A model generated the notes under the pieces. The model ran no database searches and had not been told where the DNA came from. It saw nothing but the letters and a program-made list of their open reading frames with translations. The translations under genes were made by a program, and so were the position numbers. A stretch of 64,000 nt of DNA from Prochlorococcus sp. AG-355-P16 (lineage in GTDB: Bacteria; Cyanobacteriota; Cyanobacteriia; PCC-6307; Cyanobiaceae): the NCBI GenBank assembly GCA_003278525.1, contig QCEQ01000003.1, positions 62,001-126,000 of the forward strand. Direction: 5' to 3'. Shown in pieces: positions 7,272 through 40,768 of the stretch; the first letter of the stretch is position 1; each line of letters opens with the position of its first letter.

Positions 7272-8219
7272 GTGAATGATCCAAAACAACTATTAGGAAT
7301 TAAGGGCGCCTCTGAAACATCAAGTATATGGAAACTCCGTATACAGTTAATGAAACCCATAACGTGGATCCCTTTAATATGGGGAGTTATTTGTGGCGCA
7401 GCTGCAAGTGGGAATTTTGAATGGACATTTAGTAATGTTCTAGCTTCATTAGCATGTATGTTGATGAGTGGACCGCTTCTTGCTGGTTATACCCAAACCA
7501 TAAATGATTTTTTTGATAAAGAAATTGATGCAATTAATGAGCCAAATAGACCAATTCCTTCTGGGAAAATTTCAATTAAAGATGTAAAAATACAAATCTG
7601 GGTATTACTTATAGCGGGTTTAATAGTTGCTTTTCTATTAGATTTATATGCTAAGCACAGCTTCCCCTCCGTCTTACTTTTGGCATTAGGAGGTTCCTTT
7701 GTTAGTTATATATATTCTGCTCCACCACTCAAATTAAAACAAAATGGTTGGCTTGGAAATTATGCATTAGGAGCATCTTATATAGCTTTACCTTGGTGGG
7801 CAGGACAAGCCTTGTTTGGGAAATTAACAATCGTGACGGCGATACTAACACTTGCTTATAGCCTCTCAGGACTTGGAATTGCTGTTATTAATGATTTCAA
7901 AAGTGTTGAAGGAGACTCAAAGCTAGGCTTGAATTCTCTCCCAGTAGTATTTGGAATTAAAAATGCAAGTAGAATAAGTGCAGGACTGATTGATATTTTT
8001 CAATTAGGAATGGTTGTAGTATTAGTCATTATTGGTCAACATTTAGCCTCTGTAATTTTGGTTTTATTGGTAATTCCACAAATTACATTTCAAGATATGT
8101 GGTTACTAAGAGATCCTCTAAAGTTTGATGTCAAATATCAAGCAAGTGCCCAACCGTTCCTTATTACTGGAATGTTAGTTACAGCTTTAGCGATAGGACA
8201 TAGTTTTTTAGTTGCTTAA
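7272..8219 (+). CDS. chlG: chlorophyll synthase (UbiA-type prenyltransferase)
   Basis: Attaches the phytyl/geranylgeranyl tail to (divinyl) chlorophyllide, the last step of chlorophyll synthesis, in the membrane. The 315-residue protein has about 9 hydrophobic helices and the two aspartate-rich prenyl-diphosphate motifs: NDFFDKEIDAINEPNRPIPSG and AVINDFKSVEGDSKLGLNSLP. The start is GTG. The next gene begins 1-2 bp after its stop. Confidence 0.97.
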   Translation: MNDPKQLLGIKGASETSSIWKLRIQLMKPITWIPLIWGVICGAAASGNFEWTFSNVLASLACMLMSGPLLAGYTQTINDFFDKEIDAINEPNRPIPSGKISIKDVKIQIWVLLIAGLIVAFLLDLYAKHSFPSVLLLALGGSFVSYIYSAPPLKLKQNGWLGNYALGASYIALPWWAGQALFGKLTIVTAILTLAYSLSGLGIAVINDFKSVEGDSKLGLNSLPVVFGIKNASRISAGLIDIFQLGMVVVLVIIGQHLASVILVLLVIPQITFQDMWLLRDPLKFDVKYQASAQPFLITGMLVTALAIGHSFLVA

Positions 8220-20262: not shown

Positions 20263-20355
20263 GTAGCAATCGCTACTTTTTCGTTCACCCTCATTTGAGG
20301 GCGCAGTTCGAGTCATACCATGGAACGGGGGATGGCCGTGTTGTCACATCGAAAC
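20263..20355 (+). promoter_or_regulatory. GC-richer structured 5' leader of the DUF4278 gene
   Basis: The leader contains two hairpins: GTAGC/GCTAC at 20263-20276 and the perfect CCCTCA-TT-TGAGGG at 20288-20301. The rest is notably richer in G and C than the surroundings. An upstream in-frame ATG at 20320 would add MERGMAVLSHRN to the protein. The segment could be a regulatory leader or the 5' part of a small RNA. Confidence 0.4.
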
Positions 20356-31132: not shown

Positions 31133-32500
31133 TTAAGATACAAGTGTCTCTGGCTCATTTTCAATCAAGTTAGCCAAGTCTTTCAAGAATGAAGCGCCAT
31201 CAGCTCCATAGATCACTCTGTGATCAGCTGTAAGGTTTACTTGCATTATTTTTTTAACAGATATTGAACTATCACTATTAGCTACAACAGTTGGTTTCGA
31301 TGATGCTATCGCTAAGATCGCACCTGTTCCTGGGGGTAGTATTGCGTCAAATCTATCAACACCGAACATACCAAGGTTAGATAAGGTAAATGTTCCCGTT
31401 GAGTATTCATCTGGTTCTAATTGTTTTGATCTCGATCGTTTTACGAGATCTTTCCATTCCCTAGATAATTCAAATAAATCAGTATTGCATGGTTCTTTTA
31501 ATACTGGAGTTATTAGTCCCCCATCTTCCATTGCAACAGCAACAGCAATGTTTATATTTTCTGGATAAGAAATTCCATTTTCTGAAAAGCTTGAGTTAAC
31601 TTGAGGATGTTTCTTTAGTGTCTTTGCAACTGCCTTTACAAGTAAAGCAGTCATAGTAACTCCGTTTTGTTTTACCTTTTTGTAGAAATTATCTAATTTA
31701 TCTGTATTGATAGAGTAACCCACCCTAAAACATGGAACATCTAAACTAGATTCCATATTTTTATTTACCGCTTTTTGAAGAGTATTAAACTGAACCGTTT
31801 CTCCAGGATTACCAAAACTATTTCCTGAAGTTTCTGGTTTACTTTCAACTCCCAAATTTGCACCAAGAATACTTGCAGGAGAACCACCTTCTCCTATCCA
31901 TGGTATAGAAACAGGTTGGCCATTAGCTTTTAAAATATCATCGGCTTGAATCCTTCCGTGAGGGCCAGATCCATGAACCTTTGCTAAATCAACGCCCATT
32001 TGAGAGGCTAGTTTTTTAGCTCTTGGAGATGCAATTATCCTCGAAGAAACATTGCTTGTTGCGGCATTAATTTGATCTACATTAAAAGATGGGACAGGCT
32101 TTTCACTCTTTAAGACGACTTCTTCAGCTTCTTTCTTGATATTTTCAGTCTGAACTACTGGTTTTTCTTCAGTATTATTGCTTACTAATTCAAGTTGGTC
32201 TGAAGTTGAGACTTCGGGTTGATTTCCTTTATTTTGTTCTTGGACAGAAGCTATCTCATCCTCATTTTCTACAATGAGTCCGATAGTTTCTCCAACAGGA
32301 GCAGTGCTGCCAGCAGGCATTAAAACTGCTGCAAGATATCCATCTTGAAAAGATTCAACATCCATATCTGCCTTATCAGATTCAACAACCAAGACAGATT
32401 CTCCTCTTTCAACCTTATCTCCCGGATTTTTCAACCATTCCACAATCTTGCCCTCCGTCATAGTAGAACTCAAGGCAGGCATGAATATTTCGTGACTCAT
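31133..32500 (-). CDS. pdhC: dihydrolipoamide acetyltransferase, E2 of pyruvate dehydrogenase
   Basis: E2 core of the pyruvate dehydrogenase complex; carries acetyl groups to CoA on a lipoyl arm. The lipoyl domain covers residues 1-76 with the lysine in VVESDKADMDVESF. A linker rich in Glu and Val follows. The peripheral-subunit binding domain is at about residues 155-190 (IIASPRAKKLASQMGVDLAKV). The catalytic domain ends in LTADHRVIYGADGASFLKDL with the active His. The integrated element begins about 130 bp upstream of its start, so its promoter lies in the repeated end of that element. Confidence 0.96.
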   Translation of the reverse strand: MSHEIFMPALSSTMTEGKIVEWLKNPGDKVERGESVLVVESDKADMDVESFQDGYLAAVLMPAGSTAPVGETIGLIVENEDEIASVQEQNKGNQPEVSTSDQLELVSNNTEEKPVVQTENIKKEAEEVVLKSEKPVPSFNVDQINAATSNVSSRIIASPRAKKLASQMGVDLAKVHGSGPHGRIQADDILKANGQPVSIPWIGEGGSPASILGANLGVESKPETSGNSFGNPGETVQFNTLQKAVNKNMESSLDVPCFRVGYSINTDKLDNFYKKVKQNGVTMTALLVKAVAKTLKKHPQVNSSFSENGISYPENINIAVAVAMEDGGLITPVLKEPCNTDLFELSREWKDLVKRSRSKQLEPDEYSTGTFTLSNLGMFGVDRFDAILPPGTGAILAIASSKPTVVANSDSSISVKKIMQVNLTADHRVIYGADGASFLKDLANLIENEPETLVS

Positions 32501-32535
32501 AGTAGTTTAGTAACTGCAGTTGGTTTGGGGTTGCT

Positions 32536-32646
32536 GTCTAACTAAGTGTCTAACTTTCTTGACGCTTGAAAGAGCAAATACTGATACTCATATTATACAA
32601 AACCATCCTCACAGAGGGAACATTAAAAGATTAAGAAAGTAATAAT
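32536..32646 (+). repeat. left copy of the 111-bp imperfect direct repeat (putative attL)
   Basis: This segment matches 40140-40250 without gaps at a fixed offset of 7604 bp. The outer end GTCTAACTAAGTGTCT matches 14 of 16. The last 56 bp (from 32591) match 43 of 56. The final 16 bp, TTAAGAAAGTAATAAT (32631-32646), are identical. The middle third (32552-32590) is poorly matched. Read on the minus strand it contains a TATAAT box (complement of 32591-32597 area) suited to driving pdhC. Confidence 0.7.
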
Positions 32647-32943
32647 CTAATTCTTGTAAATCAATTAGCTCCTTGAATATCAATTAAGAATACTAGGTGC
32701 GGTAACTCAATACTATTATTTGCACCTATCAGGGCCTATCACGATTAAACAAGGAAAATATAGGTGTGGGAAAACTGTAGGGTATCTATTACAAAGTCAA
32801 AACCCACGAGAACACAGTTAAAATATGTATTTTTTGTTAAATTATTGTGATACAAAGGGTGTGGGGTTGCTTTTGTAGTAGAATGGGAGAAACAGGGGTG
32901 GTTACGCACACACCTTAATTAACATTCAACTAGCTCCTTCGTT
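32647..32943. other. left non-coding region of the element, with a GGTGCGGTAACT site
   Basis: No convincing gene is visible. It contains GGTGCGGTAACT at 32696-32707, identical to the site at 36266-36277. The phrase AGCTCCTT recurs near both ends (in TCAATTAGCTCCTTG at about 32660 and CAACTAGCTCCTTCG at about 32927). GT-rich stretches follow around 32855-32910. The promoter of the serine recombinase should lie here; I see no consensus box I would defend. Confidence 0.45.
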
Positions 32944-33534
32944 ATGAACAAGATCATTGGATATTCAAGAAAATCTACATCAAAACAACAGAATGCTCCT
33001 GATGTTGAATTACTTAAGGAAGCAGGTTGTGAAATCGTGTATGAAGAAACTGCATCAACAAGAAAAGCAGAAAAGGATAGACCCGAACTAATGAAGTGTT
33101 TAGCAAGTCTTAGAACTGGGGATACGCTCAAGTTATGTTCTCTCAGTAGGCTAGGAAGAACACAACGAGAAGTAATTAATAGACTTCACGAATTACAAGC
33201 ACAATCAATCAATGTAGTTACATTAGATGGTCTTATTAATCTTGGTGCTATGGGTAAGTTTGCACCTCTATTGATTGGATTACTTACAGGATTAAACGAA
33301 GTTGAGCGTGAGTTGATTCAGGAACGCACTCAAGCATCCATTGACTATCGTAGAAAGCACGGAGGGAACTTAGGTGGTAGACCAAAAACATCTGCTAAAA
33401 AAGAACAATTAGTAATCAGACTTAGGGAAGAGGGCGAAAGTTTAAGATCCATTCAAGAGCAAACAGGTGTTGCAGTTAAAACCATTAGAAGAATTATTGC
33501 TGATAATGAAAAAGTAGTGGTAGGAGTCAAATGA
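32944..33534 (+). CDS. serine recombinase (resolvase/invertase family)
   Basis: Small serine recombinase of 196 residues. The catalytic serine is in IIGYSRKSTSKQQ (residue 8). The arginines of the active site are in LCSLSRLGRTQREVI. EVERELIQERTQASIDYRRKHG is the E-helix region. A C-terminal helix-turn-helix (SLRSIQEQTGVAVKTIRRII) binds DNA. In plasmids and transposons such enzymes resolve multimers or invert segments. Which of these applies here is unknown. It overlaps the next gene by 4 bp. Confidence 0.93.
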   Translation: MNKIIGYSRKSTSKQQNAPDVELLKEAGCEIVYEETASTRKAEKDRPELMKCLASLRTGDTLKLCSLSRLGRTQREVINRLHELQAQSINVVTLDGLINLGAMGKFAPLLIGLLTGLNEVERELIQERTQASIDYRRKHGGNLGGRPKTSAKKEQLVIRLREEGESLRSIQEQTGVAVKTIRRIIADNEKVVVGVK

Positions 33535-33731
33535 AGAGAGGAACACCACCATATGTCATTTTCCACGAAACTCAAGAGGTCATCTTCCTTATTGAAAGTG
33601 GTATGGCCTATCTTGGAATGCAATCATTCAAGAAAACACTAGGGATCCCTGATTACAAAGCAATGGTATGCAAGAGCAAAAGTCAATTCAAGGAGCTGCA
33701 ACGACAGGAGGTATCAGGCAATGGTAACTAG
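33531..33731 (+). CDS. hypothetical protein (66 aa) in the recombinase operon
   Basis: Begins MKRGTPPYVIFHETQEVIFLIESGMAYLGMQSFKKTLGI. The ATG overlaps the recombinase stop (ATGA), and its own stop overlaps the start of the next small gene, so three genes are translationally coupled. No family is recognised. A short mixed alpha/beta protein is likely. Confidence 0.6.
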   Translation: MKRGTPPYVIFHETQEVIFLIESGMAYLGMQSFKKTLGIPDYKAMVCKSKSQFKELQRQEVSGNGN

Positions 33732-33882
33732 AGTATGGGAAGTGAGATACAAACTGAATAAACAAGGCAAATACTTCTTCAAGAAGGTAACTGCAACCTA
33801 TCAACACGAAGCAAATCAACTCTTTGATGCAGATCTACCGAATGCTATTAGATGTGGATCTGCACGACCTGTAAAACAGTAG
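33721..33882 (+). CDS. small cyanophage-like protein (53 aa)
   Basis: Reads MVTRVWEVRYKLNKQGKYFF, then VTATYQHEANQLFDADLPNAIRCG. The layout (a WxVxYxxN strand, a second strand ending in TA, then a helix with EAxxxF and a short ...P.A tail) resembles small proteins that I associate with cyanophages and picocyanobacterial mobile elements. It overlaps the upstream 66-residue gene by 11 bp. The function is unknown. Confidence 0.55.
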   Translation: MVTRVWEVRYKLNKQGKYFFKKVTATYQHEANQLFDADLPNAIRCGSARPVKQ

Positions 33883-33884
33883 TT

Positions 33885-33918
33885 GGTAACGAGTTACCGC
33901 ATTATTCGGTAACTGATA
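33885..33918. promoter_or_regulatory. cluster of GGTAAC/GTTACC operator-like motifs
   Basis: GGTAAC-GA-GTTACC (33885-33898) is a perfect palindrome. AGTTACCGCAT (33892-33902) overlaps it and is the complement of ATGCGGTAACT. CGGTAACTGAT follows at 33908-33918, giving the inverted pair GTTACCG-N7-CGGTAAC. The same word occurs in three other non-coding spots of the element. Confidence 0.6.
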
Positions 33919-34157
33919 ATTATATTCTCCAAAATGTTATTAATTACAGGGGAAATTAGTAGTCAGAACTTACGACTTTACACTTTGTTGTGGGCCTGAC
34001 ACAGATAACCAAAAATATATTGAGCGAGCTAATCAAATATTGATCAACAGGTAAAAAAGTAGACTTTTAGCACCAATACTGGGGTTTTATGGGTATTATA
34101 TAACACTAAAAGATTGAAAAAAGCATTAAAAAACATATATTAGTCTTCTATTTAACG

Positions 34158-34211
34158 CTCTTAATTGATACTTTTTATCGTGATCTTAGTCTGTTAAGTA
34201 TCAATTAAGAG
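34158..34211. repeat. perfect 14-bp inverted repeat abutting a promoter
   Basis: CTCTTAATTGATAC (34158-34171) and GTATCAATTAAGAG (34198-34211) are exact complements separated by 26 bp. The right arm ends on the base before the -35 box. A related half-site ATCAATTAAGA occurs near 32679. It could be an operator for a dimer or part of an origin. Confidence 0.75.
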
Positions 34212-34240
34212 TTGACAAAGTTGAAACTTTACTATATAAT
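34212..34240 (+). promoter_or_regulatory. perfect consensus sigma-70 promoter
   Basis: TTGACA (34212-34217), exactly 17 bp, then TATAAT (34235-34240). Both hexamers and the spacing are the ideal values, unusual for this genome. Transcription would start near 34247 and run into the possible Rep gene at 34470 through a leader of about 220 bases. Confidence 0.8.
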
Positions 34241-34362
34241 TTATCCAACATCTATAATAAAATCAAAAGATCAGCGAATAGGGCAGTTCTCAAGTAGCGA
34301 TTAGATTTTATAACCATAATACTTTATACATTGATTCATTATATGATGGATCTCTTTGAGGT

Positions 34363-34380
34363 TCTTAGTATCTACTAAGA
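34363..34380. repeat. perfect 18-bp palindrome in the Rep leader
   Basis: TCTTAGTA-TC-TACTAAGA. It lies inside the predicted leader, about 120 bases after the expected transcription start and 90 bases before the possible Rep start. It may be a hairpin in RNA, an operator or a nick-site hairpin. Confidence 0.6.
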
Positions 34381-34469
34381 GGTTAAATATTAATTAAGAC
34401 TATTAATCACATAGAACTAATTGATAGACGAAGAGCTCACAGAACTATATCAATTAACAAGATATACCA

Positions 34470-35207
34470 ATGAAATTATTAGATAAGAAAGTAAAAGTAT
34501 CCTATGTAAATCCCATTGAAGAATGGTATGAGAGATACACAGTTGATCATTACAGATCCAAATACAACATTGGGAAGTATGACAATGGGATGTTGATATC
34601 AATCAGTAATAAGGAACTCAATTATGAAACCATTATTGCTCAATTCAAAGATATCTACATTTCTATTCTTAAGGCCTGCAAAGGTAAAGGATACAGATTC
34701 AGTAAATGGGATCTAAAAAGGTTCAATGGATATTGGGAAGGGGAACAAATAGTATTACCATCCAAAGAGAAACTCTTAGATGTAATTAGTCAGAAGATTC
34801 CCATTATGATTGGTGGGATTCATAACTACAAGAAAGAAGATGCTAGAAGTTGTGGTAAGGAATATTGCCACACTCACATATACCTCTATAACATTCATCA
34901 TCATTTACCAAATGCCAATGGTAGTGATAGATCTCTAAGAAATATAGAAGATAAAATTGAACGACATCTTCAACGCTATACCAACACTAGAAAGAGGTTG
35001 CAGAACATCATAAGGATCACTCCTGTTGGAGTTGGTGCTTATAAGTTTACCGATACCATTACACCAACAAAATTATATGAATACCTAAGATCTCCTATTG
35101 ATAATCCAGATGCTAATAATCTGATGAATTACATCTCAAACAATAGACATCTACCAAGTATTCAATATCCACTTGCATTGGTTCACTACAACCACCGAAT
35201 TGATTGA
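34470..35207 (+). CDS. possible replication initiator (HUH-like) of the element
   Basis: Protein of 245 residues, no family recognised with certainty. Around residues 130-145 it has a strand with the pattern CHTHIYLYNIHHH. This resembles the HxH of HUH endonucleases (Rep or relaxase), with a candidate motif 1 in GMLISISN near residue 45. Tyrosines are plentiful after it (QRYTNTRKRL, KLYEYL), but I cannot name the catalytic one. It follows the element's best promoter and control region, the place expected for a rep gene. A different nucleic-acid enzyme is possible. Confidence 0.4.
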   Translation: MKLLDKKVKVSYVNPIEEWYERYTVDHYRSKYNIGKYDNGMLISISNKELNYETIIAQFKDIYISILKACKGKGYRFSKWDLKRFNGYWEGEQIVLPSKEKLLDVISQKIPIMIGGIHNYKKEDARSCGKEYCHTHIYLYNIHHHLPNANGSDRSLRNIEDKIERHLQRYTNTRKRLQNIIRITPVGVGAYKFTDTITPTKLYEYLRSPIDNPDANNLMNYISNNRHLPSIQYPLALVHYNHRID

Positions 35208-35256
35208 TTTCATTCTAGGTGGCCTCTTAACTAACAATTACTCCCCAATTAAAACT

Positions 35257-35457
35257 ATGCTCAGATTCACTAAACATTACGCACCAAAACCATACAGACA
35301 AAAAAGTAACATAACTGGTTCATTCTCTATTAAAAAAGAATATGAACAAGACTACCAAGAACTTAGGAAACACCTGTTTGAGAACCATACAAGTATCGGA
35401 GAATATCTTGTTGAGTGTTACCGAGAACTAGACAAAATTGTATATGTCAAAAATTAA
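35257..35457 (+). CDS. hypothetical protein, possible DNA-binding (66 aa)
   Basis: From the ATG at 35257 it reads MLRFTKHYAPKPYRQKSNITGSFSIKKEYEQDYQELRKHLFENHTSIGEYLVECYREL. The second half looks like a strand plus two helices, as in ribbon-helix-helix proteins, but this is weak. The frame is open upstream to 35173, overlapping the previous gene. It may be co-transcribed with the possible Rep. Confidence 0.5.
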   Translation: MLRFTKHYAPKPYRQKSNITGSFSIKKEYEQDYQELRKHLFENHTSIGEYLVECYRELDKIVYVKN

Positions 35458-35486
35458 CTTAACGAGCTAATAACTTATTAAAAACA

Positions 35487-35648
35487 ATGTCAATTACTAT
35501 CAACAATTTCAACCAAACTGAATCAAAGATTGAGAAAGCACTTAAGGAGTTGCCAAACCATATGAAGATTGCGAATAAACAAGAGTTTGCAAAGATTGCG
35601 TGTCAGTTTTACCTTGACGAACTCAAGAGAAAGAAAGTTATTAAGTAA
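35487..35648 (+). CDS. small basic protein (53 aa), possible ribbon-helix-helix type
   Basis: Reads MSITINNFNQTESKIEKALKELPNHMKIANKQEFAKIACQFYLDELKRKK. An N-terminal strand is followed by two amphipathic helices and a Lys-rich tail. This would suit a small DNA-binding protein; the fold is a guess. It lies 29 bp after the previous stop. A longer frame at 35569-35760 overlaps it but has poorer composition. Confidence 0.5.
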   Translation: MSITINNFNQTESKIEKALKELPNHMKIANKQEFAKIACQFYLDELKRKKVIK

Positions 35649-35681
35649 TGGGCTCTTTAACTATCAACAAAGGAATAACAA

Positions 35682-35939
35682 ATGGATCTACGACAACAAC
35701 AAATACAAAATGATGCAAGCAACCATAGCATCATCAACAAAGTGTATTGGATACGAATGAAAGACAATCCAAAATATATGAGAACGATTTACTTTAAATT
35801 AAACCCATTCACAAATCAGATAGACAAACACTTTAGTAACGAACTTTATTCAGAACCACCTATAGGTGTTGAGGAACTCCCACCTAACTTGATGAGATTT
35901 GTAGGTGGAATGTCTAATCCACTCCCATACACAATATGA
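35682..35939 (+). CDS. hypothetical protein (85 aa)
   Basis: Reads MDLRQQQIQNDASNHSIINKVYWIRMKDNPKYMRTIYFKLNPFTNQIDKHF and ends GVEELPPNLMRFVGGMSNPLPYTI. No family is recognised. Its TGA overlaps the ATG of the next gene (ATGA), so the pair is translationally coupled. An acidic, proline-rich end suggests a small globular protein. Confidence 0.55.
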   Translation: MDLRQQQIQNDASNHSIINKVYWIRMKDNPKYMRTIYFKLNPFTNQIDKHFSNELYSEPPIGVEELPPNLMRFVGGMSNPLPYTI

Positions 35940-36157
35940 AAAGACTTAGAGATTCAATTGCTGTAAGAGCAAAGTTTGAGCAATTACAAGATGCTTTAGA
36001 TGATTATTTCTTCCGATTAAAACTTGATGCTCAACTCAAACGACTAACCAAAAAGGTTGAAGAATATGAGGAAAAATGTGGAATCAAAAGATATAGAACA
36101 TTAAATACTAATATGAGTTCCCCACACGCAGAACAAGTTTCAACCAGAGGTGGATAA
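35936..36157 (+). CDS. hypothetical coiled-coil protein (73 aa)
   Basis: Reads MKRLRDSIAVRAKFEQLQDALDDYFFRLKLDAQLKRLTKKVEEYEEKCGI. Most of it is a long amphipathic helix or coiled coil with a disordered tail. It overlaps the upstream gene by 4 bp and is the last rightward gene before a clear terminator. The function is unknown. Confidence 0.55.
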   Translation: MKRLRDSIAVRAKFEQLQDALDDYFFRLKLDAQLKRLTKKVEEYEEKCGIKRYRTLNTNMSSPHAEQVSTRGG

Positions 36158-36203
36158 GGTTACTGCTTATGACCTTGTTTAGTTTGTTGAAGAACTACTA
36201 CTG

Positions 36204-36237
36204 CACATCCTGTCTCTGGTTCAGGGTGTGTTTTTTT
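36204..36237 (+). terminator. intrinsic terminator closing the rightward operon of the element
   Basis: A stem of 9 pairs (CACATCCTG with CAGGGTGTG, one G-U pair) has a 9-nt loop and is followed by seven T. It lies 46 bp after the last rightward stop. The possible Rep operon thus ends here, facing the leftward genes. Confidence 0.85.
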
Positions 36238-36265
36238 ATTGAGTAAAGGCCTGTTATAAGATATT

Positions 36266-36277
36266 GGTGCGGTAACT
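36266..36277 (+). promoter_or_regulatory. GGTGCGGTAACT site between convergent operons
   Basis: Identical over 12 bp to the site at 32696-32707. Its position between two convergent operons, not at a promoter, argues that the motif is not only a transcription operator. Further right, 36351-36363 is a T-run and I see nothing else defensible up to 36418. Confidence 0.5.
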
Positions 36278-36418
36278 GATAAGGCAGTTATATAAGGTTC
36301 CATTATGCAAGTCTACAAATGCAATTTCGGAATCCGTATACAATTGATCTCAATTTTTTTTTCGTGGGTGGAATTGACCCCAGAGGTTTTTATAAATCTG
36401 TTAGCTCTTTAATTGTTG

Positions 36419-36796
36419 TTAATTACCTTCAATAATTCCCATCAAAGTATCAATCTTTTTTTGATATGACTTGAATGACATTATCCTACCTTGTTCCTTC
36501 AGTTTGGATGCTCTGCTAGTAGATGGCACAGGGTTATTGTTTAGTTCATATTGTTCTTTGGTTAGGTCTATTACTTCTCCATCAGGTGTTTCACACCACC
36601 AATGCCATACACCATTATGATCTTTGACTTTCCATAGTATGACCTTGTTTCCCACAAGTTTCTTGAGGGTAACGGATGCACAGTAACACATACCCTCATA
36701 AGGATTTGCCTTCTTTGGATTCCTCGTATGAAACTCCACCAATGCTGATCTAACCTTTATTGATGCTTGCTCTATTTGTGGATCTTGTGAATACAT
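36419..36796 (-). CDS. cysteine-peptidase/transglutaminase-like phage-type protein (125 aa)
   Basis: The centre has three conserved-looking blocks in order: GMCYCASVTLKKLVG, VWHWWCETPDGE and VIDLTKEQY. A Cys, His and Asp in this order and spacing suggest a papain-like/transglutaminase fold triad. I associate the 'CY.AS....HW......G.VIDLT..Q' pattern with phage proteins of unknown role. Its ATG overlaps the stop of the 434-residue gene by 1 bp (TAATG), so the two are coupled. The substrate is unknown. Confidence 0.5.
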   Translation of the reverse strand: MYSQDPQIEQASIKVRSALVEFHTRNPKKANPYEGMCYCASVTLKKLVGNKVILWKVKDHNGVWHWWCETPDGEVIDLTKEQYELNNNPVPSTSRASKLKEQGRIMSFKSYQKKIDTLMGIIEGN

Positions 36797-38100
36797 TAGA
36801 GGGCCTGTTGCTTATGTTTTTCACTTATAACTTTCCTCATTTTTTCGTTCAGATATTCCATCTCAATATGGGTTGGATTTAATACAGATTTATACTTCCT
36901 CATCCCCCAATCGCCTTTAAGGATTTTCTTCTTCCAATACTCAAATATGGATACTAAACTATTTTGCTCTAACTCAACTCTTTCAACATTGATAAGGTTG
37001 TCATCCCAATGTTCTAATCCATAAGTTGATACATAACATCTCTTAGATTCTGTTAATTCCAATAGGCTCGTTAACTGACTATCAAACTTATCTTTTAACG
37101 ACCTAATAGTAATATCTTTCTTGTTATACCAAAGACAATATTCAACATAACTAACCAACTCTCTAAAGGATCTGTCTGCCTTGCTAGACCCTCTGAAAGA
37201 GAACTTAGATCTTTCTATACCTCTACGATCTAACCAATCTTTAATGCGATCAAAGTGAGGGTTCTGCATCCTCATAAAGTGCTTAGATTCAGTCTTACCA
37301 ATGAACTTGATATAACGATCTAATTGATCATATTGGCATTGTGGTTTTGTAGAACCATACAGCGACATTGAATACCAAAGTATGATGTTTCGCTTGTATC
37401 GTTCATTAAACCAATTCCTAATTTCATTACTCTGTGAAAGCAAAGCAAGGAGTTTACCACCTCTATATTTTGATCCAAATGGTTGAGTTGGAACTAATAC
37501 TTTGGCATTCATAATATGAGCATTCACGAAGTCGGGCATCAACTTTGCTTGACCAAGATATTCCTGAAGGGGCTTGTTGTTTAATACTCCTGAATCACAT
37601 CTAATCCAACCTAAAATATATTCATCATTAGGGATCTCACTTTCTTCTTTAATGAACTTAACTGTATCGTGATCGGCTGATTGAGTTACGACAAAATCAC
37701 TACATTGCCAACCACCATAGTTGATATGACTACTCGTGAGATCCAGTAGTTTCAGATATTCTGGTATCTTCTTTCTTGAATCATTCGGAGTTCCCACGAA
37801 ACGAATGTTTATACCAAGTGAGGCTAGGTCAATTTCACTACCCTTCTTGAATGAATGATCAATACCCTTCTTGATATATCCCTTCTTCTTCAGATCCTCA
37901 ATCTTCTGGAACTCCATTAAATCAAGAGCATTCTTAGAAGGTGCGAAGTATCCAAGCAAATAATTTGTGATGTATATGGTATCAGCGATATCCAAGACTA
38001 TGGGGTATCTCTTACGAGTATCAATCTCATCATTATCTGCTCTAATATAATTTGGATTTATTATCAATTTAGAAAAATAATTACACCTGTTAATTAACAT
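36796..38100 (-). CDS. unknown 434-residue protein, DUF4338/DruA-like layout in the middle
   Basis: No confident family. The centre (about residues 195-275) reads NAKVLVPTQPFGSKYRGGKL, then SNEIRNWFNERYKRNIILWYSMSLYG, QYDQLDRYIKFIGKT. This order (a strand with L-P, a GG-L-x-A-L helix, a W...Y-K segment, a strand, then a ...Y..IG.T tail) recalls DUF4338 proteins such as DruA of the Druantia anti-phage system, but the match is by eye and weak. It heads a leftward two-gene operon and diverges from the ribbon-helix-helix gene across a 76-bp control region. Confidence 0.4.
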   Translation of the reverse strand: MLINRCNYFSKLIINPNYIRADNDEIDTRKRYPIVLDIADTIYITNYLLGYFAPSKNALDLMEFQKIEDLKKKGYIKKGIDHSFKKGSEIDLASLGINIRFVGTPNDSRKKIPEYLKLLDLTSSHINYGGWQCSDFVVTQSADHDTVKFIKEESEIPNDEYILGWIRCDSGVLNNKPLQEYLGQAKLMPDFVNAHIMNAKVLVPTQPFGSKYRGGKLLALLSQSNEIRNWFNERYKRNIILWYSMSLYGSTKPQCQYDQLDRYIKFIGKTESKHFMRMQNPHFDRIKDWLDRRGIERSKFSFRGSSKADRSFRELVSYVEYCLWYNKKDITIRSLKDKFDSQLTSLLELTESKRCYVSTYGLEHWDDNLINVERVELEQNSLVSIFEYWKKKILKGDWGMRKYKSVLNPTHIEMEYLNEKMRKVISEKHKQQAL

Positions 38101-38108
38101 TTAAGCGA

Positions 38109-38177
38109 CCCTAATTAGGGAGTGCAAAAATTATATTATTTGTTAATCTAGTAACAGTTACCGCACAGTAACCGCAT
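38109..38177. promoter_or_regulatory. divergent control region with a perfect palindrome and GTTACCGC motifs
   Basis: Only 76 bp separate the divergent starts at 38100 and 38177. It holds a perfect 12-bp palindrome CCCTAATTAGGG (38109-38120), an AT-rich stretch suitable for -10 boxes, and AGTTACCGCAC (38156-38166) followed by the near copy AGTAACCGCAT (38167-38177). The second copy touches the TTG start of the ribbon-helix-helix gene, a natural place for autorepression. Confidence 0.6.
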
Positions 38178-38572
38178 TGGCAAAAAAACCTAACGAAGTT
38201 CACTTAACTTTTTGCATTGATGGGGTTGCAAGAGATCAATTCCAGACTCTATGCAAGACCTATAATGTATCTGCATCAACTGTATTGAGGGAGTGGGTTG
38301 AGGGTGCATTAAAGAGTGGTTCTATTGATAAAGAAAGAGCTCCTGAAGTTGCATCAACACAAACTCAAAGCATTAGTAATACTGACAAAAAGGTTATTGA
38401 AAATATATTGAGCAGGCTAGATGAAGTAGAACGAAATACTGCATATCTCAACGACAATCAAATGCAATTCATCAAAGAGGAAGTTCTAGGAGATGCTATG
38501 GGAACACTAAGGAATCGTATGGGAGTAGCAGAGAATCAGATCCAAGAACTAGGTGGTAACATAACTCGCTAA
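38177..38572 (+). CDS. ribbon-helix-helix-like DNA-binding protein with C-terminal coiled coil
   Basis: Protein of 131 residues. The N-terminal 50 (NEVHLTFCIDGVARDQFQTLCKTYNVSASTVLREWVEGAL) fit a ribbon-helix-helix: one strand, then two helices around the VSASTVLREWV turn. After an acidic linker, residues 75-125 form a long helix or coiled coil (NILSRLDEVERNTAYLNDNQMQFI). The start is TTG. It is a candidate regulator that binds the GCGGTAACT motifs which touch its own start; this is inference. Confidence 0.65.
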   Translation: MAKKPNEVHLTFCIDGVARDQFQTLCKTYNVSASTVLREWVEGALKSGSIDKERAPEVASTQTQSISNTDKKVIENILSRLDEVERNTAYLNDNQMQFIKEEVLGDAMGTLRNRMGVAENQIQELGGNITR

Positions 38573-38598
38573 TTAACAAACTTAGAGCTATACACTTA

Positions 38599-39957
38599 TC
38601 AGTTAATCAGTTCATCTTCTCCTTTATTCGGAACTTGAGTGTCTTTGAAGAATCCAAGTTCATCCATAGAGTATCTGGAACTCAATCTGTCGTAAGTCAT
38701 CTGTATCATTGCCATTGATGTTCCAACATTCTTGGCAACTTTGTTAACTGATATCCCTTGTAGCAACTGATAAGAGATGTGTGTTGACCTAAGTGAGTAA
38801 AGTGTATATCTTTGCTTGAAATCGCACTCTCTAACTACCAAGTTCCACATATCTCTAATATACGATTCGTGATATATTCTTCTCTTTCCATTAAGAAATG
38901 GATTCATTAGAACAAGATCATCCTTTTCAGGATTATGAACTGGTGGTAGTTCCTTTTCGTGTCTACGATTATGAAAATCTAATACCTTATCTCCACCCAA
39001 CAACTTTTCATTCATTAGGCTGATTTGCTTATTACGAATCTTGATACCTTTATTCAGATGATATTTAACATTTAAGAAGGTATTACCATTCATAACTGCT
39101 TCTCTTCTACCAGTTTTAGTGTCAGCATCAATCTGAATTATTGCTACAGGTTTACCATCTTTTCTTTTATCCATCTCTACATCCCCGAATCGGATTTTCC
39201 TTGCTTCGTGACCCCTAAATCCTCCTCCATACATAAACCTCACATAGTTGATAAACCATCTTCTACGCCAAGTTTCATATTCATTTTCATATCCCTGATC
39301 AAACTTATAAAGAACATCCTTAAAGGCCTGCCAATCATTAGGTAAAAACGCAGGATTTGCCTCATCTCTAAACTTTGTTCTGTTCTTGATTCTTTGGATT
39401 ACTGGTTTATGGATAGGGTCAAGATGATTATTGTTTACCATCCAAGTGAACATCACATTCAGAGTGGATATGTCGGTGTTTATGGTAGTAGGAGATAGAC
39501 CCTTACAAGCATTTGCCCATCTACCTCTTTGCGTTTTATCTAATTGGAATCCAGCATAATCATCAAAACTATTTTTCCTAATATCTTTGATGTTGCTTAG
39601 ATTTTTATATTTCAGATATGGTAGGTATCTTTGTTCAATTCTTTGACCATATAATTTTGCAGTTAGTGCTTTAGTTTGACCTCGCTCAACATCTTTATGT
39701 TTCGCCTCCATATACTTTTCAAATATCCTTGCGATAGTCATTGTTGATTTACTTGAACGAGGAGGTTCAGATACAACTTTCACATATGCCTTAATTGCAT
39801 TCTTGCGGGCTTGTTCAATATCATCAGTATTAAGTGAAATATTGGTATATTTTTTACCTCCTCTATACACTTTTAGGTTGAAATATTTTCTATCTTTGTA
39901 TTTGCAAATGGTTGCCTCTCCATTAAGTGTTGATTCTTGATATTCAAGAGCAGGCAT
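38599..39957 (-). CDS. tyrosine recombinase/integrase of the element
   Basis: Integrase of 452 residues, reading leftwards away from the right end. An N-terminal arm-binding part is followed by a SAM-like core-binding domain (about residues 65-180, ending TDISTLNVMFTWMVNNNHLD). The catalytic domain has RFMYGGGFRGHEARKIRFGDVEM (catalytic Arg region), LYSLRSTHISYQLLQG (the RxxH pair) and MIQMTYDRL, which carries the nucleophilic tyrosine. It sits beside the right repeat, the usual place for an integrase. It is unlike the integrase fragment near tRNA-Thr. Confidence 0.92.
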   Translation of the reverse strand: MPALEYQESTLNGEATICKYKDRKYFNLKVYRGGKKYTNISLNTDDIEQARKNAIKAYVKVVSEPPRSSKSTMTIARIFEKYMEAKHKDVERGQTKALTAKLYGQRIEQRYLPYLKYKNLSNIKDIRKNSFDDYAGFQLDKTQRGRWANACKGLSPTTINTDISTLNVMFTWMVNNNHLDPIHKPVIQRIKNRTKFRDEANPAFLPNDWQAFKDVLYKFDQGYENEYETWRRRWFINYVRFMYGGGFRGHEARKIRFGDVEMDKRKDGKPVAIIQIDADTKTGRREAVMNGNTFLNVKYHLNKGIKIRNKQISLMNEKLLGGDKVLDFHNRRHEKELPPVHNPEKDDLVLMNPFLNGKRRIYHESYIRDMWNLVVRECDFKQRYTLYSLRSTHISYQLLQGISVNKVAKNVGTSMAMIQMTYDRLSSRYSMDELGFFKDTQVPNKGEDELIN

Positions 39958-39978
39958 AACAACGAAATGTCTGAATCT

Positions 39979-40174
39979 CTGTCTAACTTACGAACAAAGA
40001 TCCATTATGGTAACTAATTCTATTATACTCTATTTTTACTGTCTAACTACTGTCTAACCACCACTTTCGTTGCTGTCACTACACTATGGATACTTCGTGA
40101 GACATAGGAAATTAGTTATAGCAATGGTTTTCAAGGACTGTCTACCAAAGTGTCTTCTATTTATAAGGTTAGAC
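39979..40174. repeat. repeated ACTGTCTAAC words, candidate integrase arm sites
   Basis: CTGTCTAAC at 39979-39987, ACTGTCTAAC at 40038-40047 and again at 40049-40058, ACTGTCTACC at 40137-40146, and the inverted GTTAGAC at 40168-40174. The left end has the same word twice (32534-32542 and 32546-32554). Short direct repeats at fixed distances from a core are what arm-type integrase sites look like. The segment also carries the integrase promoter. Confidence 0.6.
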
Positions 40175-40250
40175 GCCTTTCAAACACTTGTTATTATTAT
40201 ACGAAATCATGTTCTTAGTGGAAACTCTTAAAACTTAAGAAAGTAATAAT
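40140..40250 (+). repeat. right copy of the 111-bp imperfect direct repeat (putative attR)
   Basis: Matches 32536-32646 at constant offset 7604. The identical 16-bp core TTAAGAAAGTAATAAT is at 40235-40250. Similarity stops abruptly after it on the right. The minus-strand TATAAT box is preserved (complement of 40195-40201). The two copies differ by about a quarter over the last 56 bp, so this is not a recent perfect duplication. Confidence 0.7.
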
Positions 40251-40324
40251 TTAGATCGATTAGAATTTAAAACTTTTCGAAATTAAGATTTACTTATATT
40301 TTTCAAAAATACTAAATCTTCGCT

Positions 40325-40768
40325 TTAATTATTATCTATAGATTGAATAACCCCATCTTTAACCGTAATCGAGACTTGCATTTTTTCAATAAGATTGTCT
40401 CCCACAGTGACATCACAGAAACTATCCACTTGCCCTTGATCAACAATTTCGTCCATTTTTAATTCGCGAACTTGACTCTGTTGTTGAAGTAGATTTCTTT
40501 TTTGTTCTTCAATTTCATTTCGTTTTGCTGCGACTTGTTGTTGCACCTGACTAACCTGTTCTTGAACCCTTGGATCTAAAGGATTAACCGATTGAGATCT
40601 AATATTATTTACTATTTGCTGCCCCTCTTGCTCCAGTTGTGATAATTGCTGATCAATGTTTGAAATTGCTTTACTTAATTCTTTTTCAGCATCTTCCTTC
40701 CAAGTTGGCGTAACTACAGCTTTAATAGCTATTGAGCGCTTTATAGATATTGAGTTTTTTGTTTCCAT
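40325..40768 (-). CDS. YlqD family protein
   Basis: Protein of 147 residues: an N-terminal strand region ISIKRSIAIKAVVTPTWKEDAEKELSKAI, a long coiled coil of about 80 residues rich in Gln and Glu, then VDSFCDVTVGDNLIEKMQVSITVKDGVIQSID. This is the YlqD pattern. The function is unknown. It is the first core gene to the right of the element. Confidence 0.85.
   Translation of the reverse strand: METKNSISIKRSIAIKAVVTPTWKEDAEKELSKAISNIDQQLSQLEQEGQQIVNNIRSQSVNPLDPRVQEQVSQVQQQVAAKRNEIEEQKRNLLQQQSQVRELKMDEIVDQGQVDSFCDVTVGDNLIEKMQVSITVKDGVIQSIDNN

What the first reader, a model, noticed from the sequence alone, without database searches (positions are those of the whole stretch)
32536..40250. A 7.6-kb integrated element between pdhC and ylqD with recombinases of both families
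Two ordinary core genes are separated by a block of recombinase, phage-like and unknown genes, bounded by an imperfect 111-bp direct repeat at constant offset 7604. It has an integrase beside the right end and a possible Rep with a control region, but no capsid, packaging or transfer genes. This is what an integrative satellite or tycheposon-like element would look like, yet it uses no tRNA. The combination of a tyrosine integrase, a serine recombinase, a possible HUH Rep and two novel leftward genes is not one I can match to a described family.
Basis: partly seen in the sequence, partly recalled or inferred. Interest (0 to 1): 0.85.

Follow-up and report, generated by a model that had tools for sequence, protein, structure and literature searches.

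The report
Mobile element that overwrites pdhC's promoter
A small stretch of mobile DNA in a marine cyanobacterium has inserted itself into the first few codons of a core metabolism gene and handed that gene a replacement leader and start, and related elements in other marine picocyanobacteria sit at the same spot.

Summary
The block is real: an integrated mobile element of about 7,605 bp between pdhC and ylqD. Of 124 sampled genus genomes with ylqD, 111 have an empty site (120-229 bp); the window and 4 others carry inserts with the same junction.

The target is the first codons of pdhC, not a tRNA. The ylqD side keeps the host's own leader plus ATG-TCT-CAC-GAA. The pdhC side has an element-borne leader, promoter-like box and start (ATG-AGT-CAC-GAA, same residues). 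Tandem GTTAGACA pairs, probably integrase arm sites, lie only at the two ends.

Every strong integrase relative (10 of 10 family genomes, window included; 8 of 8 named contigs) lies beside ylqD. Cargo varies: serine recombinase, a Mom/DruA-type protein shared with T4-like cyanophages, YunG. Three integrase-less mini-inserts share the junction.

HUH Rep is unsupported; packaging and circular form were not testable. It works like the 5'-end integrators at dusA and prfC, fails the tRNA criterion for tycheposons, and is nearest to picocyanobacterial integrase-plus-serine-recombinase islands. A new variant of a known kind.

The parts
31133..32500 (-). pdhC (dihydrolipoamide acetyltransferase, E2), the target gene; its first codons and leader are now supplied by the element
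   Evidence: Pfam PF00198, PF02817, PF00364; junction analysis
32489..32495 (.). left attachment core TTCGTGA (TCACGAA read along pdhC); the exact crossover inside the shared letters cannot be placed
   Evidence: shared by both ends and by empty sites
32496..32650 (-). element-borne pdhC leader with TATAAT 97 nt upstream of the ATG (about 32592-32597)
   Evidence: promoter role inferred
32535..32554 (-). tandem GTTAGACA pair, probable integrase arm-type site
   Evidence: function inferred
32944..33534 (+). small serine recombinase (resolvase/invertase type, 196 aa)
   Evidence: Pfam PF00239 E 1.1e-26, phrog_125 E 2.3e-42
33721..33882 (+). 53-aa ORF, 63% identical over 51 aa to a stretch beside the integrase of L169
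34470..35207 (+).
   Evidence: no significant family; AF2 pLDDT 32; one 36% fragment in another genome
35173..36157 (+). four small unidentified ORFs (94, 53, 85, 73 aa)
36419..36796 (-). YunG-family protein (125 aa)
   Evidence: Pfam PF24585 E 2.3e-10; relatives in the L169 and L176 elements
36796..38100 (-). 434-aa Mom/DruA-type protein, GNAT-like in the model, related to a T4-like cyanophage protein
   Evidence: phrog_19197 E 1.2e-46; DruA E 1.3e-4 below cut-off; phage homologues; fold
38177..38572 (+). 131-aa protein, ribbon-helix-helix-like by eye; 42% identical to one in the G037 element
   Evidence: only weak family hits
38599..39957 (-). tyrosine integrase (452 aa)
   Evidence: phrog_1 E 2.7e-22; R248, K281, R390, H393, Y422 invariant in A1 (catalytic role from general knowledge)
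39980..39987 (-). GTTAGACA just upstream of int
40040..40058 (-). tandem GTTAGACA pair, probable integrase arm-type site
40094..40100 (.). right attachment core TTCGTGA
40101..40324 (-). displaced original host pdhC leader and start (ATG TCT CAC GAA)
   Evidence: 97% identical to an empty site
40325..40768 (-). ylqD, host flank
   Evidence: Pfam PF11068 E 2.1e-36

Best explanation
A site-specific integrative element. Its tyrosine integrase binds arm-type GTTRGACA repeats at both ends of the element and recombines a core of about 7 bp (TCACGAA) in element DNA with the same sequence in the first codons of host pdhC (codons 2-4 in the window). Integration splits pdhC from its leader. The host's leader, start codon and first codons stay beside ylqD. 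The element supplies pdhC with its own promoter-like leader, ATG and synonymous first codons, so the reading frame stays whole. Excision would restore the original gene. The rest is exchangeable cargo, including a serine recombinase and a Mom-type DNA-modification candidate. Shown: the junctions, empty sites, duplicated leader, repeats, in-frame pdhC start and constant site across relatives. Inferred: integrase action at this core, arm-site role, promoter activity, excision, transfer by a helper.
For: (1) Empty site: 111 of 124 ylqD-bearing genus genomes have 120-229 bp between ylqD and pdhC. (2) In 6 of 6 inserts compared (window, G017, G037, G069, G053, and G471/L169), the ylqD-side leader matches some empty site at 95-100%, while the pdhC-side leader reaches at best 80-91%, as expected if the crossover lies in pdhC codons. 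(3) 14 of 16 integrase-bearing loci carry a copy of the pdhC start between ylqD and int. (4) All ten strong integrase genes among 251 family genomes (window included) have ylqD beside them; so do 8 of 8 loci of a separate scan, several of them the same genomes. (5) All five GTTAGACA in 64 kb lie at the two ends (1.17 expected, maximum 4 in 100 shuffles); two tandem pairs against 0.01 expected. (6) In the 12 insert-bearing loci where the pdhC start was held, a start codon (ATG; TTG in L065) stands in frame with the conserved MPALSSTMTEGK. [quoted passage not shown]
Against: A stricter first test, 15 nt of the pdhC start of each locus against random windows, beat every null window in only 10 of 19 loci, the window's own not among them; it counted letters past the crossover, and the looser pattern was written after seeing the ends. 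L071 (broken integrase) and L176 lack the junction copy. L151 has a 1.5-kb insert without it and was left out of the comparison. Codon 2 differs between the two ends only in the window and G037; in the other four inserts both ends read ATG TCT. G037's new leader has GATAAT, not TATAAT. No circular form, excision or expression data exist here. TAGACA pairs also occur in some empty sites (8 of 111 exact), so they could be a host regulatory site.
Confidence: 0.88

Rival explanations
1. A decayed prophage or ordinary genomic island that happens to sit in the pdhC-ylqD gap, with the repeats being a chance or ancestral duplication of the pdhC promoter.
For: One genome of the genus is rearranged here (L141) and one has an insert without junction copy (L151).
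Against: Same junction in the first codons of pdhC in loci from Prochlorococcus to Synechococcus; strong integrase relatives always next to ylqD; integrase frame intact; repeat score far above shuffles.
Confidence: 0.05
2. A minimal phage satellite, PICMI-like, that is packaged by virulent T4-like cyanophages and uses the Mom-type protein to give its DNA the helper's modification.
Against: No related integrase in viral contigs except one at 23% identity (the tool may leave out records of the window's own genome); an 18-base right-end pattern was not found there; no packaging gene.
Confidence: 0.25
3. A member of the picocyanobacterial island family with a novel integrase and a small serine recombinase (PMC10187409), with a swapped integration module.
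For: Serine recombinases of the window, L169 and L069 elements are 53-68% identical to those of tRNA-Cys islands L388-L391; zinc-ribbon-like proteins resemble those of two of these (36% and 42%).
Against: The integrases are not clearly related (no profile hit at E up to 1; hhalign probability 6.6%, E 0.0056, 57 columns of the C-terminal part only). Only 7 of 15 pdhC-site elements searched showed such a recombinase, some of them cut by contig ends. The recombinase is a common gene (33 of 151 family genomes), so sharing it is weak evidence. I could not check that the tRNA-Cys integrases are cluster158946.
Confidence: 0.4

Closest known systems
Integrative elements at the 5' end of dusA (IMEVchUSA3) and SXT/R391 at prfC
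   Same: Insertion in the 5' end of a housekeeping gene; the element supplies a new promoter and start (PMC8409611 and PMC4344509, passages seen).
   Different: Here the target is pdhC, the first residues stay the same (Met-Ser-His-Glu in the window), the host is a picocyanobacterium, and no conjugation or mobilisation genes were found among the ORFs scanned.
Picocyanobacterial islands with integrase cluster158946 and a small serine recombinase (PMC10187409)
   Same: Marine Prochlorococcus and Synechococcus, tyrosine integrase, often a small serine recombinase, variable cargo including restriction/modification.
   Different: Site is pdhC, not tRNA-Phe or tRNA-Cys; the integrase is not clearly related to those I found in tRNA-Cys islands.
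Tycheposons
   Same: Tyrosine recombinase, cargo-carrying element, Prochlorococcus; size within the 4-200 kb given in PMC10872708.
   Different: They are described as lying at tRNA genes (PMC10872708 passages; Hackl 2023 not held); this one is not.
PICMI phage satellites
   Same: Very small, integrase-led, next to a fixed host gene, no packaging genes (PMC10803314 passages).
   Different: No AlpA or primase gene recognised in the window's element; no packaging evidence; different host and site (fis).
Phage Mu Mom / DruA-type proteins
   Same: GNAT-like fold in the model; relatives in sister elements match PF14236 strongly and the Mom-like family phrog_1384 weakly.
   Different: The window's protein is only distantly alike (DruA 21.7 bits against a cut-off of 27); activity unknown.

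Membership tests
Site-specific integrative element (tyrosine integrase type) | Integrase gene beside the attachment site | tested here: met
   int at 38599-39957, next to the right core
Site-specific integrative element (tyrosine integrase type) | Empty site in relatives and duplicated core at both ends | tested here: met
   111 of 124 empty; core at both ends
Site-specific integrative element (tyrosine integrase type) | Excised circular form | not testable with these tools
   no reads
5'-end integrators (dusA, prfC type), as a mechanism | Crossover in first codons; element supplies new 5' coding sequence | tested here: met
   counter-evidence
5'-end integrators (dusA, prfC type), as a mechanism | Supplied leader drives the gene | not testable with these tools
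   TATAAT 97 nt from ATG is suggestive only
Tycheposon | Integrated at a tRNA gene | tested here: not met
   no tRNA near the ends; target is pdhC
Tycheposon | Integrase within the tycheposon integrase clades | not testable with these tools
   Hackl 2023 not held
cluster158946 islands (PMC10187409) | Small serine recombinase near the integrase | tested here: met
   present in the window; 7 of 15 distinct pdhC-site elements searched (window, L067, L068, L069, L070, L073, L169)
cluster158946 islands (PMC10187409) | Integrase of that family | tested here: inconclusive
   no clear relation to integrases of tRNA-Cys islands used as stand-ins; the paper's accession was not available to me
cluster158946 islands (PMC10187409) | Site at tRNA-Phe or tRNA-Cys | tested here: not met
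Phage satellite | Packaged in helper virions | not testable with these tools
   IMG/VR searches gave no close copy, which is weak
HUH Rep protein | HUH endonuclease family or fold | tested here: inconclusive
   no significant family match; model pLDDT 32
Mom/DruA-type GNAT | GNAT fold | tested here: met
   50 of 50 chains listed are acetyl- or acyltransferases, Z 8.7-9.8, 136-169 aligned residues; moderate, since unrelated models often reach Z 7-8 and Foldseek itself had no E below 0.001
Mom/DruA-type GNAT | DNA modification activity | not testable with these tools
   no assay

The most novel reading that the evidence does not exclude
A family of small helper-dependent elements in marine picocyanobacteria has repeatedly overwritten the promoter of pdhC. 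The leaders of many 'empty' genomes are themselves fossils of earlier visits: they carry intact or decaying TAGACA pairs at the same place, about 62-64 nt before the end of the core (8 of 111 exact, 10 more with one or two mismatches in all, 48 with three, only six of those 48 printed, no shuffle control). Integrase binding in the pdhC leader would couple element state to pyruvate dehydrogenase expression. The Mom-type protein would give element DNA the same protection as the T4-like cyanophages that carry it between cells.
Probability: 0.2. Interest if true: 0.82.

Novelty: new variant of a known kind. Interest (0 to 1): 0.62.

Why it matters
In the papers I saw, mobile islands of marine picocyanobacteria, among the most abundant photosynthetic cells on Earth, are tied to tRNA genes. 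This adds a protein-gene dock, the start of pdhC, used by related integrases in Prochlorococcus and Synechococcus, where each visit replaces the leader of a central carbon gene. It also ties small islands to a candidate DNA-modification protein that T4-like cyanophages carry in their replication gene cluster. The site is precise, so it is directly testable: circle PCR, attB PCR and pdhC expression in carriers and empty strains. It also shows inserts without integrase at the same junction, each with one recognised gene (an endonuclease/phosphatase, a TPR protein, a T5orf172 protein), a possible cassette-like system.

Tried and rejected
HUH Rep: no significant match in Pfam, PHROGs or NCBIfam, nothing credible in PDB sequences, no phage hit, a meaningless model. 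One related fragment lies in an ordinary region of another genome. One viral contig encodes a relative but no locus was returned, so I could not read it.

Defence system: PADLOC gave only a weak hit (RT_UG32, E 0.0019) for the 131-aa protein, and none for the other five proteins given; DruA-like alone is not Druantia.

Packaged copies: integrase searches of viral contigs found one 23% relative; an 18-base right-end pattern found none. A search with the Mom-like protein alone found no viral contig; the four-sequence alignment then found many.

tRNA-Phe/Cys integrases as close relatives: no match at E up to 1 to the pdhC-integrase profile in 60 loci (1.5 kb either side) around full or partial copies of these tRNAs from 30 genomes. 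Islands with partial tRNA-Cys copies hold a different integrase family, without a Pfam hit for the two scanned.

Repeats in the 33882-34470 gap looked like chance and were not pursued. One search's junction test was weak (10 of 19) and is told above.

In print: searches of the open-licence library for tycheposon, Prochlorococcus islands and pdhC with picocyanobacteria listed nothing whose title or abstract start speaks of a pdhC site; only listings were seen for most of these papers.
Full report
What was checked. The repeat, genes and gap were verified first. pdhC and ylqD are as named. The two ends of the block share about 169 aligned bases, offset 7604-7605, with local score 48 against at most 19 in 2,000 shuffles and in 1,401 other pieces of the window. 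The only tRNAs are some 14 kb away.

Empty site. A search for ylqD in 151 genomes of the genus (the window's own included) found it in 124. Reading the DNA between ylqD and pdhC in these 124 gave 111 empty sites of 120-229 bp. The window and four others have inserts with the diagnostic junction: G037 7.05 kb, G069 1.95 kb, G017 1.73 kb, G053 1.32 kb. One has an insert without it (G015, 1.49 kb). Five, alike in their ylqD, have 0.42-0.46 kb with a small ORF. One is rearranged (G054) and one ends at a contig end. The integrase itself is rare: 3 of 266 genus genomes had full-strength matches (G000, G037, G471, 692 bits or more); eight others had short matches of about 45 bits or less. In a sample of 244 genomes of the phylum 3 gave full-strength matches, all in the same family (G000, G154, G194); five more had weak ones.

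The target. Aligning empty sites with both ends of the window showed that the right end is not just a repeat: it is the host's complete original pdhC leader, including ATG TCT CAC GAA. The leader now in front of pdhC is a diverged one, with ATG AGT CAC GAA (Ser either way). For six inserts (the five above plus G471/L169, which was not in the 151-genome draw), the ylqD-side leader is 95-100% identical to some empty site, and the pdhC-side leader at best 80-91% (end gaps free, so partial alignments can flatter both). Codon 2 differs between the ends only in the window and G037. The shared core is TCACGAA, at window 32489-32495 and 40094-40100, giving a unit of 7605 bp; where inside it the strands cross cannot be said. 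In the Synechococcus-type genomes the same thing is visible with their own pdhC starts, for example TTGGCGACCCACGACAT between ylqD and int. A pattern for such starts hits that place in 14 of 16 integrase-bearing loci, against 10 hits in 2.3 Mb (both strands) of 215 other loci. The pattern was written after seeing the ends. A stricter test beat all its null windows in only 10 of 19 loci, partly because it counts letters beyond the crossover, and in L064 because the searched stretch ended before the junction. L071, whose integrase is broken, and L176 lack the copy.

Constancy of the site. Ten genomes of a 251-genome family sample, the window's included, had strong integrase hits (best segment 199 bits or more), and all ten have ylqD in the fetched neighbourhood. 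Apart from second segments of the same genes, the other hits score 56 bits or less; none of the 20 loci made for them (L042-L061, 1.5 kb either side) has ylqD or pdhC. A separate scan of named genomes gave eight loci, all beside ylqD: AG-349-G15 (84% identical integrase, G471), AG-426-L07 (the same contig as G037), AG-439-M18, AG-679-B05, an uncultured Synechococcus MAG, AG-673-B04, MU1642 and AG-683-C23. With the profile, family members score 596 bits or more (L174, split in two, 480 plus 140) and the other picocyanobacterial integrases tested 107 or less.

Arm-like repeats. GTTAGACA occurs five times in 64 kb, all on the same strand at the two ends; 1.17 are expected, maximum 4 in 100 shuffles. 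Tandem pairs: two against 0.01 expected. Relatives show GTTGGACA or GTTGGAACA pairs near both ends (by eye). Among the 111 empty sites, 8 carry an exact TAGACA pair, 5 one with one mismatch, 5 with two and 48 with three. All 18 with up to two mismatches lie 63-64 nt before the end of the core; of the 48, the six printed lie at 62 (no shuffle control). I read these as fossils of earlier visits, or as a host site that elements copy; I cannot tell which.

Cargo. G037's element has the same plan as the window's: serine recombinase by pdhC, small genes, Mom-like gene (51%), 42% relative of the 131-aa protein, integrase (59%). L169 shares an 84% integrase but has other cargo: another serine recombinase, a 326-aa DruA-family protein (PF14236, E 7.7e-21) and a 502-aa YunG-like protein. 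L069 has a 246-aa DruA-family protein (E 8.2e-20) with a weak Mom-like hit; L067 a ParB/N6-N4 methyltransferase fusion; L064 what looks like type I restriction genes (by eye; the pdhC end of that element was not reached). A serine recombinase was found in 7 of 15 distinct pdhC-site elements searched. The three mini-inserts without integrase carry an endonuclease/exonuclease/phosphatase protein, a TPR protein and a T5orf172 protein.

The 434-aa protein. It is related to proteins of 31 phage records (25.8-30% identity in the 20 shown). In S-SSM7 the gene lies, with one small ORF, between clamp loader genes gp44 and gp62; in S-SCSM2R it is annotated 'methylcarbamoylase mom'. The model (mean pLDDT 73.5) has no Foldseek hit below E 0.001, the leading ones being mostly acetyltransferases. 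In the second look all 50 rows listed are acetyl- or acyltransferases, Z 8.7-9.8, rmsd 2.9-4.0, 136-169 aligned; the tool warns that unrelated models often reach 7-8. A fold shows no function; DNA modification is inferred from the Mom-like hits of relatives and one phage annotation.

The nearest kind. PMC10187409 (passages and section 7 read) describes a novel integrase in picocyanobacteria, distinct from tycheposon integrases, frequently near a small serine recombinase, upstream of tRNA-Phe or tRNA-Cys. I found tRNA-Cys islands with partial tRNA copies in four genomes. Their integrases match each other at 38-47%, two scanned have no Pfam hit, and the group is not clearly related to the pdhC integrase (no profile hit; hhalign probability 6.6%, E 0.0056 over 57 C-terminal columns). 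Their serine recombinases are 53-68% identical to those of the window, L169 and L069 elements. Since the recombinase is widespread (33 of 151 genomes), a shared backbone with exchanged integrases is attractive but unproven.

How it works, in steps. Integrase at a core in the first codons of pdhC: strongly indicated. Replacement leader and start: shown as sequence, activity inferred from a TATAAT 97 nt upstream (G037's leader has GATAAT instead) and from the dusA and prfC precedents. Excision, transfer and helper: inferred. Serine recombinase role (resolution or inversion): unknown.

Noticed in passing
L388, L389, L390, L391: Islands at tRNA-Cys carry a ~460-505 aa integrase family (no Pfam hit in the two scanned) together with serine recombinases close to those of the pdhC elements; partial tRNA-Cys copies lie 6.6-12.8 kb away.
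   Followed up: partly
L072, L074, L086: Integrase-less inserts of 1.3-1.9 kb, one recognised gene each, with the same pdhC junction and arm-like repeats: possible cassettes moved in trans.
   Followed up: partly
L151 (G015): 1.5-kb insert between ylqD and pdhC with an element-type leader but no host leader copy found beside ylqD: perhaps a relic.
   Followed up: no
L161-L165: A 60-61 aa ORF between ylqD and pdhC, read in L161 and L163, with similar DNA in the other three.
   Followed up: no
window 20279-20336: Glutamine-II riboswitch (Rfam RF01704).
   Followed up: no
L063, L064, L065, L067, L068, L069, L169, L172: Recurring small cysteine-rich, zinc-ribbon-like protein (grouped by eye and); one (L069) has a weak DNA primase hit (phrog_1139, E 6.9e-4).
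   Followed up: partly
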